From contig CALXKL010000010.1 of NCBI GenBank assembly GCA_944388965.1, positions 1 to 64,000 on the forward strand: a stretch of DNA of 64,000 nucleotides. Direction: 5' to 3'. The position numbers and the translations under genes are program-made. Shown here piece by piece: positions 1 to 14,982 of this stretch. Source of the stretch: an uncultured Spirochaetales bacterium. Lineage in GTDB: Bacteria; Spirochaetota; Spirochaetia; Sphaerochaetales; Sphaerochaetaceae. Numbering within the stretch: the stretch's first letter is position 1; each line of letters opens with the position of its first letter. Below the pieces are notes generated by a model, which saw only the letters and a list, made by a program, of their open reading frames with translations, did not search any database and had not been told where the DNA came from.

Positions 1-108
1 CCAGAGAGAGGTGGCTCCCACTCGTTCCCATCCCGAACACGAAAGTGAAACGCCTCTTCGCCGATGGTACTGCGGCTCGTCCGTGGGAGAGTAGGGCGTC
101 GCCAGGTT
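1..108 (+). rRNA. rrf: 5S ribosomal RNA, 3' part
   Basis: The sequence carries the conserved 5S core (CCCATCCCGAACACG followed by GATGGTACTGC) and the closing helix I strand near 95-107. The first roughly ten bases of the gene lie left of the window, so the gene is partial. It is followed directly by a run of T and then a clear hairpin terminator, which marks the end of an rRNA operon. Confidence 0.9.
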
Positions 109-11485: not shown

Positions 11486-12322
11486 CTAGCCGCCAAGCTG
11501 GTCAAGATACCGCTCAAGCTGGCTGGCGGCCTCGTGATAGAACACCCCGAGCTGGCCGCTGTAGCGATCCTTCCACGGCTTGTTCCGTCCACAGTAGTGG
11601 ATGAGCGCGCACTCTCTTCTTACATCATCGAGCGAGAGATGCCTCCTGTCCGGATCGAGGTTGTTCAGCACCAGCATCCTGTCGGAGAGGTTGTATCTCA
11701 TATGGTCGACGAGTCTGATGCGCTGTCCGTACAGCGCCATGACTATGTCCTGGTCGGGAAGGACGAAGGCCTGTCCCTTGTCCCTTATGAAGGAGAACAG
11801 CCTGTCGGGGTTCCAGCCGCTCCTTAGCTTTGCCAGGTTCATGAGCATGACCCCTGTGTTGATGTAGCATGCCCTGCTGTCGCTGCCCATGCCGAGTCTG
11901 ATGGCGTTTATCCTGGTCAGCATGCGTTTCGTATGAGTACACCCTGCAATATAATAATTTTCTATATCAGTATTATATAATTCAACCAGACTGTTTATAC
12001 AGATTATATCAACATCCAGGTAAAGAATCCTATCGATATCATCTGGAAGAAGTACAGGAGCGAAAAGTCTGAAATAGATCTCGACCGGATAGCGGGACGT
12101 GGTGGGGGAGCCATCGAGAAGACCTGCGTCGAAGCGGATGAATGAAATGCAAAGCGAGTCGTCCTCAAGCCGGCGTATCCTGTCCATGTCCTCCTGTGTG
12201 AGGTCCCTGTGGATGATATGCACGTGCAGGTCATCGAATCCCGCGCTTCTCTTCAGCGTGAAGAGGTTCGTCATCAGCAGTCCCGTGTACGAATGGTTGA
12301 TGCAGTAGAGAATGTCCGCCAT
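11486..12322 (-). CDS. Glycosyltransferase family 8 protein
   Basis: This 278-residue enzyme is a retaining GT8 glycosyltransferase (GT-A fold). It has the DxD metal and sugar-nucleotide site in LYLDVDIICINSL, the later YINTGVMLMNL and DQDIVMALYG segments, and a C-terminal IHYCGRNKPWKD, which corresponds to the family's conserved HF-x-G-x-KPW ending. Such enzymes usually add galactose or glucose to lipopolysaccharide or related glycans. It lies 19 bases upstream of the helicase gene. The IscB element ends 20 bases before its start codon, and no good ribosome binding site or promoter is visible in that short gap, so expression may depend on readthrough. Confidence 0.9.
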   Translation of the reverse strand: MADILYCINHSYTGLLMTNLFTLKRSAGFDDLHVHIIHRDLTQEDMDRIRRLEDDSLCISFIRFDAGLLDGSPTTSRYPVEIYFRLFAPVLLPDDIDRILYLDVDIICINSLVELYNTDIENYYIAGCTHTKRMLTRINAIRLGMGSDSRACYINTGVMLMNLAKLRSGWNPDRLFSFIRDKGQAFVLPDQDIVMALYGQRIRLVDHMRYNLSDRMLVLNNLDPDRRHLSLDDVRRECALIHYCGRNKPWKDRYSGQLGVFYHEAASQLERYLDQLGG

Positions 12323-12342
12323 GAAATCGCCGCAGGGTACTC

Positions 12343-13599
12343 CTATGCTTGCATAGGGAATGAATGCGGCACCCTCCTTGTATAGATTCTTGTCTTTGCA
12401 TGCTCAACGAGCACGGTCTTTCTCATTAAGACGTATTTCGCAACCGTTCCATCAGCGTATCTGAGGTTCACCCTTCCGTCGGACTTCCTCGCAGTCACCA
12501 GTGCCTCCTTCCCGTCATGAAGACAGATGTCGTATCGCTGGTATCCTCTGATGTATCTTGGACCCTGCTGGCTCTGCCTTCTCCCTCCCTTCTTCAAGTT
12601 GTCCTTACAGAGTTTCCTGTTGTGGCAGCGTACCTTCAGGATGTCGTAGATATCGTCACATCTTGAAGCGTGAAGGTTCCCTGCGATGCAGAAGGCGTCG
12701 GCCGCATGGTTCTTCCCGAGGCCGAGGCTGTTCCTCACATGGTTCGTGATGTAGCCGTAGGTCTGCGTTACGGGGATATCGGGATGTGCGGCCCTGACCT
12801 TGTCAAGGAGGAACCATCGCATCGTCGACATCTCTGTCGCGCCTTTGAAGCCTTTGTTTTCAGGGAAGGGGATGTCCAATGGACTCTTTCCATTGTGGTG
12901 GTTCGTGTGGCATTTTTCGCACAGCGTGATGAGGTTGGCCGGCCGGTCGGAGCCTCCATCCTTGCGCTGGACGATGTGGTGGACTTCCAGGTGCTCATGG
13001 CTGCCACAGTTCCAACAGGTGAAATTGTCCCTTGCCTTCACATATGCCTTGACGTTTTCATAACCGAGCTGCTCTCCTTCCTGGTAGCGCCTGCCCTCGA
13101 TATCCTCGTCCGTGATCTTCTGTATATCGAAGGATGCCGTCTCGATGACGATTCTGGAGACGGGGAGGATGGTGCATACGTCATCGATCACGTTCTCATG
13201 TGCCCTGACCTTCGCCTCCATCGTGGGGGTGAGCCAGCCATCAGGACGGCGCCTGTTGTCGAAGCGTGGCTTCCTGTATCTCAGGCGTGAACGCCTTGTG
13301 CCTCTCGACTGGCTCCTTGCGGTCATCAGCTGCGGGATGTCGTCCCTCAGTGTCATTTCAGCGCTGAAGAGCTCTTCCTTCTCCGTCGATGCCGAGAGCC
13401 CGACATGCTTCGAGCCTGCATCCACGCCGAGCGTCACAGGCTGTGTGCAATGGGTCTGCGGCTCGTAGAGGAGCTGGATTGTGAAGGGCGAGCGCTTTAC
13501 GACCTTCGCCTGTTTGCGTCTCAGAAGCCACTTAACCTTGCCGTACCTCTTTGTAGGCATCAGCGGCCTTCCTTCCTTGTCGATGATGTAGACCATCAT
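12343..13599 (-). CDS. iscB: RNA-guided HNH/RuvC endonuclease IscB
   Basis: The product is 418 residues and matches IscB, the OMEGA nuclease ancestor of Cas9. From the N-terminus it has the PLMP domain (PLMP at 12-15), RuvC-I (GVDAGSKHVGL, Asp60), an arginine-rich bridge helix (about 97-120), RuvC-II (RIVIETASFD, Glu153), a full HNH domain with a CxxC zinc knuckle (CWNC and CEKC), the catalytic EVHHIV and Asn222, then RuvC-III (NHAADAF, His298 and Asp301) and a C-terminal target-adjacent-motif domain. All expected catalytic residues are present. The start is ATG at 13599 or 13596, right after AAGGAGG. The open frame continues to 13830, but that part runs through the structured omega-RNA and is not protein-like. 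Confidence 0.93.
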   Translation of the reverse strand: MMVYIIDKEGRPLMPTKRYGKVKWLLRRKQAKVVKRSPFTIQLLYEPQTHCTQPVTLGVDAGSKHVGLSASTEKEELFSAEMTLRDDIPQLMTARSQSRGTRRSRLRYRKPRFDNRRRPDGWLTPTMEAKVRAHENVIDDVCTILPVSRIVIETASFDIQKITDEDIEGRRYQEGEQLGYENVKAYVKARDNFTCWNCGSHEHLEVHHIVQRKDGGSDRPANLITLCEKCHTNHHNGKSPLDIPFPENKGFKGATEMSTMRWFLLDKVRAAHPDIPVTQTYGYITNHVRNSLGLGKNHAADAFCIAGNLHASRCDDIYDILKVRCHNRKLCKDNLKKGGRRQSQQGPRYIRGYQRYDICLHDGKEALVTARKSDGRVNLRYADGTVAKYVLMRKTVLVEHAKTRIYTRRVPHSFPMQA

Positions 13600-13872
13600 T
13601 CCTCCTTGACCTCGATTGAGGTAATGCCGGATTCCTCCGGTCGCCGGGCCTCTCTCCCGGCTGTCCCACGCCGATGTTGTCCCGGGGTTTGCTGCCAGCC
13701 GCACGGCCCCCTCCCGTGAGGGCGTTTGACGGCAGGCCGTAGGGCAGGGGGCTGGGACGCGCCTTGCGGCTTGCACCCCCTGGTGCCTATATATTCCCGG
13801 ACAACGTAGTTCAGGACGGATGTCCTTCACTCCGGCTGATCACCTTGAGCACAAGCCCCTATCCTTGGATAG
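13600..13872 (-). ncRNA. Omega-RNA (HEARO) scaffold upstream of iscB
   Basis: HEARO RNAs lie directly upstream of iscB and guide the nuclease. Here the minus-strand RNA can form many consistent helices: a long-range pairing of GTTGTCCGGG (13805-13796) with CCCGGGACAAC (13686-13676) with one bulge; CAGGGGG with CCCCCTG; GCC-GCAA-GGC with a GNRA loop; ACGGCC with GGCCGT enclosing CCCTCACGGGAGGG; and CCGGG-AGAGAGG-CCCGG just before the gene. The guide is expected at the 5' end, beyond the left-end hairpin near 13873-13895, inside the tail of the DUF362 gene. Ends are approximate. Confidence 0.75.
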
Positions 13873-13884
13873 CGGGTCGGTGAC

Positions 13885-14982
13885 TCACTTCTCCTCGACT
13901 CTTATGGCATCGGCCGGGCACATCTCGGCGCAGCAGTAGCAGCGGATGCATCTGCTGGTGTCGATTTCGATTCTGCCATCAATTGCCAGCGCCTTTGCAG
14001 GACAGATCTGCACGCATCTGGTACACCTGAGGCACCGTTCAAGGTCGAAGACGGGAGCAGGTCTTGCCTGTGCCCGGCGTCTGTCGCGACCTCGGGTGAA
14101 GAAGGGCAGCACCAGAGACGAGAACAGTCCCTTGGGCCTCTCGACCTCTATCCTCCTGAAATCGTCGATGACAAGATCACCGGCATCCAGAAGCGGGTAG
14201 GAGATCTCTGATGTGCCGAGCCCGGCCTTGCGTCCCGCTTCGAGAATCGGGATGTCGGCAGGATCGTGTCCCATTACAATGGCCTGCGCCCTGTCGACCA
14301 GGAATGCGTCGGCGCCTCCCATCATGAGGCCGACGTACCGCAGCGTCCCGTTGGCAGGTCCGGGGCCTTCCATGCCGATGACCGAGTCGATGAGGGCCCA
14401 GGCGACCCTGGCCTTCCTGAAGAGCCGTGTGATGAAGTCTGCGAACCCGTCCCGCGAGGGATGACGCAGGTGCATCGGACTCTTGTTGAGGCCCGGCATG
14501 ATGCCGAACATGTTCTTGACCGCTCCGGTCGTGTACATGAGCTGATGCGTCTTGAACTTCGCAACTGATATCGTGAAGTCGACCTTGTCGATGATGGAGG
14601 CGACGGTTACCTTCTCACCTCCATCCAGAACGGTCTGCACAGGGTCCCTGCTGAAGTCCACCCATGTGGCGCCGGTACGGCTGCACACTTCGGCGATTCC
14701 ACACACCTGGCCATGGAAGGACGGTGTATGCAGGCCGGGGGAGTCCCCGACATAGACCTGCGCGGCACCCCGCTCCTGACATATGCGGATGACGGCTTCG
14801 ACGACAAGGGGATTGGTCGTGATGCCGGCTTCGGCCCTGCTGTCTGACAGGATGTTCGGCTTCACCAGCACTCTTCTTCCCATGCAGTCGGGAAACGATG
14901 TCGAGTCGGCCACCTGGCGTACCGCCTCGTATACGTCCTTCTCCTCATATCGCGTGCATCGCGCAATGGCAACCCTGTTCAT
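13885..14982 (-). CDS. DUF362 domain protein with two 4Fe-4S clusters
   Basis: This 365-residue protein has an N-terminal DUF362 domain (residues about 1-290) with the VLVKPNIL, YVGDSPG and KFKTHQLMYTTGAVKNMFG segments, followed by a bacterial ferredoxin-like tail with two cluster motifs, CLRCTRCVQICP and CIRCYCCAEMCP. Proteins of this type are common in anaerobes and are presumed redox proteins, but the reaction is not known. The start overlaps the stop of the methyltransferase gene by four bases, indicating translational coupling. The IscB element begins within about 12 bases of its stop. Confidence 0.85.
   Translation of the reverse strand: MNRVAIARCTRYEEKDVYEAVRQVADSTSFPDCMGRRVLVKPNILSDSRAEAGITTNPLVVEAVIRICQERGAAQVYVGDSPGLHTPSFHGQVCGIAEVCSRTGATWVDFSRDPVQTVLDGGEKVTVASIIDKVDFTISVAKFKTHQLMYTTGAVKNMFGIMPGLNKSPMHLRHPSRDGFADFITRLFRKARVAWALIDSVIGMEGPGPANGTLRYVGLMMGGADAFLVDRAQAIVMGHDPADIPILEAGRKAGLGTSEISYPLLDAGDLVIDDFRRIEVERPKGLFSSLVLPFFTRGRDRRRAQARPAPVFDLERCLRCTRCVQICPAKALAIDGRIEIDTSRCIRCYCCAEMCPADAIRVEEK

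What the first reader, a model, noticed from the sequence alone, without database searches (positions are those of the whole stretch)
12343..13872. Compact IscB / omega-RNA element with all catalytic residues intact
The 418-residue protein shows the PLMP domain, RuvC I-III (Asp60, Glu153, His298, Asp301), bridge helix and complete HNH (His207/His208, Asn222) of IscB. Directly upstream is an RNA region with five mutually consistent helices including a long-range pairing. Few IscB loci are described in spirochaetes to my knowledge, and the small size makes a clean natural example.
Basis: partly seen in the sequence, partly recalled or inferred. Interest (0 to 1): 0.75.

Follow-up and report, generated by a model that had tools for sequence, protein, structure and literature searches.

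The report
IscB transposon docked at start codons
This is a complete, ordinary IscB (an ancestor of Cas9) mobile element with its guide RNA; the less ordinary part is that it and its relatives land exactly between a host gene's ribosome-binding site and its start codon, so the start codon doubles as the enzyme's likely recognition motif.

Summary
The window holds an intact IscB gene (12343-13599, minus strand, 418 aa; NCBIfam guided_IscB 329.9 bits, cut-off 175) with a full-length HEARO/omega RNA directly upstream (13884-13660, 85.8 bits, gathering score 83). All the named catalytic residues are present. An empty site in a sister species shows the whole element is 12323-13884 (1562 bp). A 93% identical copy sits at a different locus in another species, with dN/dS 0.18, so the family is mobile and its protein is under constraint. 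As a kind it is known, and size and anatomy are typical. It is rare in spirochaetes (10 of 392 genomes, 2 of 167 genera). New to me is the insertion rule. Of 24 elements with both ends mapped, 23 are followed by ATG[A/G] and 20 sit at the start of a co-directional gene, including ligA, recR, recG and rsfS. The left flank, which is the guide, often carries the Shine-Dalgarno sequence. Some subfamilies end IscB in a stop codon overlapping the host ATG (TGATG); others end in a new Shine-Dalgarno sequence. I infer that this spares the host gene, drives the omega RNA from the host promoter, and makes the empty start-codon site the cleavage target.

The parts
12323..13884 (-). whole IscB/HEARO mobile element, 1562 bp
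   Evidence: empty site in sister species G002 joins the upstream gene's TGA directly to the downstream gene's ATG; 93.3% identical element in G008 with unrelated flanks begins at the same base; coordinates read back
13660..13884 (-). omega RNA scaffold (HEARO), left end of element
   Evidence: RF02033, 85.8 bits, full length; covariation in the family
13885..13900 (-). inferred 16-nt native guide AGTCGAGGAGAAGTGA: last codons and stop of the upstream gene, containing the Shine-Dalgarno-like GAGGAG
   Evidence: position immediately 5' of the HEARO as in known IscB systems; a 17-nt version is unique in the genome, next best matches have 3 mismatches; sequence
12343..13599 (-). iscB, 418 aa (possibly 417), PLMP-RuvC-bridge helix-HNH
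13601..13606 (-). AGGAGG ribosome-binding site of iscB
   Evidence: sequence directly
12328..12371 (-). right-end bulged hairpin: inner stem CCTATG-CAAG-CATAGG (12342-12357), outer stem GCCGCA/TGCGGC
   Evidence: pairing kept while sequence differs between subfamilies; coordinates
12317..12322 (-). ATGGCG: right-flank target motif (inferred TAM), which is the start codon of the downstream gene
   Evidence: present in the empty site; ATG[AG] follows 23 of 24 mapped elements
11486..12322 (-). host gene at whose start codon the element sits: family 8 glycosyltransferase
   Evidence: PF01501 119 bits; 10 of 16 genomes of the genus carry it
13885..14982 (-). upstream host gene: DUF362 / 4Fe-4S protein whose stop codon abuts the left end
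   Evidence: PF04015 157 bits; found in 15 of 16 genomes of the genus

Best explanation
It is an intact, recently mobile IS200/IS605-like element that carries IscB and its omega RNA but no transposase. It inserted exactly between the Shine-Dalgarno region and the start codon of a glycosyltransferase gene, in the gene's own direction. Shown by sequence: the ends, the empty site, the intact protein and RNA, the family-wide ATG[AG] right flank, and the location at start codons. Inferred: the omega RNA is transcribed from the host operon and takes the last ~16 nt of the upstream flank as guide; IscB then cuts any copy of the locus that has lost the element, because there the guide match meets the motif ATGR, while the filled site is spared because the element separates guide match from motif. 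Repair by recombination restores the element. Family members re-supply translation of the host gene either by an IscB stop codon that overlaps the host ATG (TGATG/ATGA) or by a new Shine-Dalgarno at the right end; in this window the stop lies 20 nt upstream, so weaker re-initiation is the guess here. A Y1 transposase acting in trans is assumed.
For: IscB and HEARO profile hits. Catalytic residues. Empty site. A 93.3% identical copy at another locus in G008, whose own DUF362-GT8 locus is empty. dN/dS 0.18 between the two copies. Right flank ATG[AG] in 23 of 24 full elements; 20 of 24 at the start of an ORF of 77-777 codons, many of known family aligned from near the first residue (LigA, RecR, RecG, RsfS, PNP, MATE, TctB, Xer-type integrase). 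The ligA start codon is conserved in all 16 genomes of the genus; recR starts at the same position in all 16 (ATG in 14, GTG in 2), and upstream neighbours match in those compared. Shine-Dalgarno in the left flank in 15 of 25 against 11-15% at random positions and 71% at called starts (P about 3e-7). IscB stop overlaps the ATG in 5 spirochaete elements (+1) and one at +4, and independently in annotated Shewanella, Pseudoalteromonas and Campylobacter plasmids. Right-flank ATGR fits the IscB TAM distribution NWRRN reported in PMC13180657.
Against: No expression, cleavage or transposition data. The genome's only Y1 transposase gene lies beside a tnpB, and no element end was found near it beyond chance-length matches. 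Exceptions exist: two intragenic insertions (L068, L082), one intergenic (L060), one with ATAA (L093). Right-end rescue is not evident in the window's own element. The null for start-codon preference comes from rough gene calls in one 64-kb window. In about 40% of the non-spirochaete loci examined the next annotated start is too far away to support the rule.
Confidence: 0.85

Rival explanations
1. The start-codon pattern is a by-product: the element inserts at any ATGR, and insertions inside genes are purged by selection, leaving those at start codons and in intergenic DNA. No special design.
For: Intragenic and intergenic insertions do occur (L060, L068, L082), and one intragenic copy has a truncated IscB, as expected if such copies are short-lived. 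ATG[AG] is by itself a sufficient motif.
Against: 20 of 24 at starts is more than expected even if 40% of harmless ATGR sites were starts (P about 2e-5; about 2e-12 at 17%). Purging does not explain IscB stop codons overlapping the host ATG or Shine-Dalgarno sequences at the right end.
Confidence: 0.35
2. The locus is a domesticated host gene rather than a mobile element.
For: No transposase in the element; the coding sequence is under constraint.
Against: The two flanking genes are adjacent, with no element between them, in all 9 other genomes of the genus where both were found; the close copy lies at another site with unrelated flanks; copy number varies and ORF-less derivatives share both ends.
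Confidence: 0.03
3. Inactive remnant with a decayed guide RNA or protein.
For: HEARO score only just above gathering (85.8 vs 83).
Against: Full-length HEARO with kept pairing, intact ORF and residues, dN/dS 0.18.
Confidence: 0.1

Closest known systems
IscB / HEARO (omega RNA) elements, e.g. OgeuIscB and MG35-1 (PMC13180657, PMC9755519)
   Same: protein domains, catalytic residues, HEARO RNA directly upstream, guide position 5' of the RNA, right-flank motif compatible with NWRRN
   Different: host phylum; shorter bridge-helix region than OgeuIscB; the start-codon insertion site is not described in the papers I could read
TnpB-carrying IS200/IS605 elements
   Same: subterminal hairpin ends, no target duplication at the one resolved site, nuclease thought to retain the element by cutting the empty site (PMC11870625)
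   Different: IscB with its RNA upstream and guide from the left flank, motif on the right; no transposase gene in the element
IStrons and group I introns (PMC4227781)
   Same: mobile elements that limit harm to the gene they enter
   Different: they splice out of RNA; here harm would be limited by position and translation re-initiation, with no splicing

Membership tests
IscB RNA-guided nuclease | match to curated IscB model over its cut-off | tested here: met
   NF040563 329.9 bits vs 175
IscB RNA-guided nuclease | RuvC and HNH catalytic residues intact | tested here: met
   D60, E153, H207, H208, N222, H298, D301, aligned with IscB structures
IscB RNA-guided nuclease | HEARO/omega RNA directly upstream | tested here: met
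   RF02033 at 13884-13660, 85.8 bits
IscB RNA-guided nuclease | right-flank motif compatible with known IscB TAMs | tested here: met
   ATGGCG here, ATG[AG] in 23 of 24; NWRRN in PMC13180657
IscB RNA-guided nuclease | RNA-guided DNA cleavage | not testable with these tools
   needs biochemistry
IS200/IS605-type transposon | subterminal hairpins at both ends | tested here: met
   left and right hairpins in most family members, with compensatory differences
IS200/IS605-type transposon | precise insertion without target duplication | tested here: met
   G002 empty site joins the two flanks exactly; recR site in G005 consistent with the intact neighbourhood in G015
IS200/IS605-type transposon | own Y1 transposase (tnpA) | tested here: not met
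   none in the element; the genome's single Y1 gene is next to a tnpB elsewhere. Hence called IS200/IS605-like and non-autonomous

The most novel reading that the evidence does not exclude
IscB/HEARO transposons across several phyla have evolved to occupy translation start sites: their motif is the start codon, their guide is the host gene's 5' leader, they are driven by the host promoter, and their right end (overlapping stop codon or new Shine-Dalgarno) restores translation of the gene, so they can sit harmlessly in front of essential genes.
Probability: 0.4. Interest if true: 0.7.

Novelty: new member of a known kind. Interest (0 to 1): 0.45.

Why it matters
The element itself adds a rare, intact spirochaete IscB with a mapped empty site and a defined native guide, so the retention model (cut the empty allele) can be tested on a natural pair. 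If the start-codon rule is general, it explains how these transposons persist in front of essential genes, predicts the TAM of a new IscB from genomic sequence alone, and gives a simple way to find element ends and empty targets.

Tried and rejected
Domesticated gene: rejected, since the locus is empty in relatives and the close copy is elsewhere. Transposase in cis: none; the Y1 genes of the genus share no clear ends with the IscB elements (only 14-18 nt matches). Viral spread: no IscB like this in the viral collection with the peptide patterns used; distant IscBs occur in some phage records. L081 was treated as a truncated remnant and left out of the counts of 24. Literature: no held paper was found that links IscB with start-codon insertion or translational coupling. 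The 2009 HEARO paper, the 2015 ISC paper, Altae-Tran 2021 and Meers 2023 are not held. From memory, unverified, the HEARO paper reports integration at ATGA or GTGA; if so the motif is known and only its reading as start codon plus Shine-Dalgarno would be new. No structure prediction was run, because the profile and structure-sequence matches already settle the family.

Full report
What is there. On the minus strand, an ORF at 12343-13599 encodes 418 aa. It matches RRXRR (202 bits) and HNH in Pfam, NCBIfam 'RNA-guided endonuclease IscB' at 329.9 bits against a cut-off of 175, and the solved IscB structures. Directly upstream, 13884-13660 is a full-length HEARO RNA (RF02033, 85.8 bits, gathering 83). 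In an alignment of 18 family members, 51 pairs are predicted and 25 show compensatory changes.

Ends and mobility. In the sister species G002 the DUF362 gene's TGA is followed immediately by the ATG of the glycosyltransferase; in the window 1562 bp separate them. The element is therefore 12323-13884. G008 has a 93.3% identical element beginning at the same base but in front of a different gene (an MFS-type transporter), while its own DUF362-GT8 locus is empty. Between these two IscB genes dN is 0.042, dS 0.233, ratio 0.18. The right end carries a bulged hairpin whose pairing is kept while its sequence changes between subfamilies. No transposase lies in the element, and the only Y1 gene in the genome is next to a tnpB elsewhere. 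Mobilisation in trans is assumed.

Distribution. The genome has one IscB. Eight of the 16 genomes of the genus have HEARO, and the same eight have a strong IscB match. In the phylum 10 of 392 sampled genomes and 2 of 167 genera have HEARO, all in one family. Several short ORF-less elements share both ends (L062, L074, L092).

The insertion rule. I mapped both ends of 25 elements by pairwise alignment and set aside one truncated remnant (L081, apparently inside a LysR-like gene). Of 24, 23 are followed by ATG[AG]. Twenty are followed by an ORF of 77-777 codons that starts at that ATG, among them LigA, RecR, RecG, RsfS, PNP, MATE, TctB, a Xer-type integrase and GT8, whose family profiles align from near residue 1. 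For ligA the start codon is conserved in all 16 genomes; for recR the start position is conserved, with GTG in two. The four exceptions are L060 (intergenic), L068 and L082 (inside genes, judged from the reading frames across the junction) and L093 (ATAA). Fifteen of 25 left flanks carry a Shine-Dalgarno-like motif 4-18 nt from the junction, against 15% of random positions, 11% of random intergenic positions and 71% of called gene starts. In a rough gene call of the window, 28 of 1408 ATGR sites are gene starts and 445 others are intergenic; even taking 17% or 40% as the chance of a start, 20 of 24 has P of 2e-12 or 2e-5. That gene call is incomplete, so these are guides rather than exact figures.

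Right-end rescue. In subfamily B (L060, L061, L084, L085, L091) the IscB stop codon TGA is completed by the A of the target ATG, giving TGATG. The same one-base overlap is annotated independently in plasmids of Shewanella, two Pseudoalteromonas and Campylobacter fetus. In the ORF-less elements L062, L074 and L092 and in subfamily F (L066, L067, L082) the right end instead finishes with GGAG/GAGG about 4-7 nt before the ATG. In the window's own element neither is present: the stop is 20 nt before the ATG. In other phyla a start codon, usually ATGA, lies 14-107 nt after the IscB stop in many but not all loci, and the next gene is co-directional in nearly all.

How it most likely works. Shown: intact parts, ends, empty site, motif and position. 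Inferred: transcription from the host operon makes an omega RNA whose 5' guide is the last ~16 nt of the flank, here AGTCGAGGAGAAGTGA; a 17-nt version is unique in the genome, with the next matches at 3 mismatches. On the empty allele this guide match is followed by ATGGCG, which fits the IscB TAM distribution NWRRN (PMC13180657), so IscB would cut it; on the filled allele it is followed by GTCACC and is spared. This is the retention scheme described for TnpB (PMC11870625).

Known or new. The element is a member of the known IscB/HEARO kind and meets its sequence criteria; it fails only the 'own transposase' criterion of an autonomous IS200/IS605 element. The start-codon reading was not found in the held literature, but the key papers are not held, and from memory the HEARO paper already names ATGA/GTGA as integration sites, so I rate novelty conservatively.

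Noticed in passing
L062, L074, L092, L093, L079, L076: HEARO elements of about 355-720 bp without a complete IscB ORF that keep both ends; likely non-autonomous derivatives that could use IscB and transposase in trans.
   Followed up: partly
L202:1247-1323, L210:1357-1434: Group II intron matches just upstream of IscB, next to or in place of part of the HEARO RNA, in a Pseudoalteromonas and an Oscillatoria plasmid.
   Followed up: no
L162-L169, upstream of ligA: In many species of the genus a TATACT-like box lies about 6-8 nt before the ligA ATG, suggesting a leaderless transcript.
   Followed up: no
L078 / L102 (G005 ligA): About 48 nt between the upstream gene and the ligA ATG of relatives are missing in the species with the insertion, so that insertion may have come with a deletion.
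   Followed up: no
L134, L135: IscB elements lie between parA and parB on plasmids of Trichormus and Deinococcus, at the parB start codon.
   Followed up: no
G000:C8 (L059): The genome's only Y1 transposase gene lies divergent from a TnpB-like gene, an ordinary IS605-like pair.
   Followed up: partly
window 1-107: 5S rRNA cut by the window edge.
   Followed up: no
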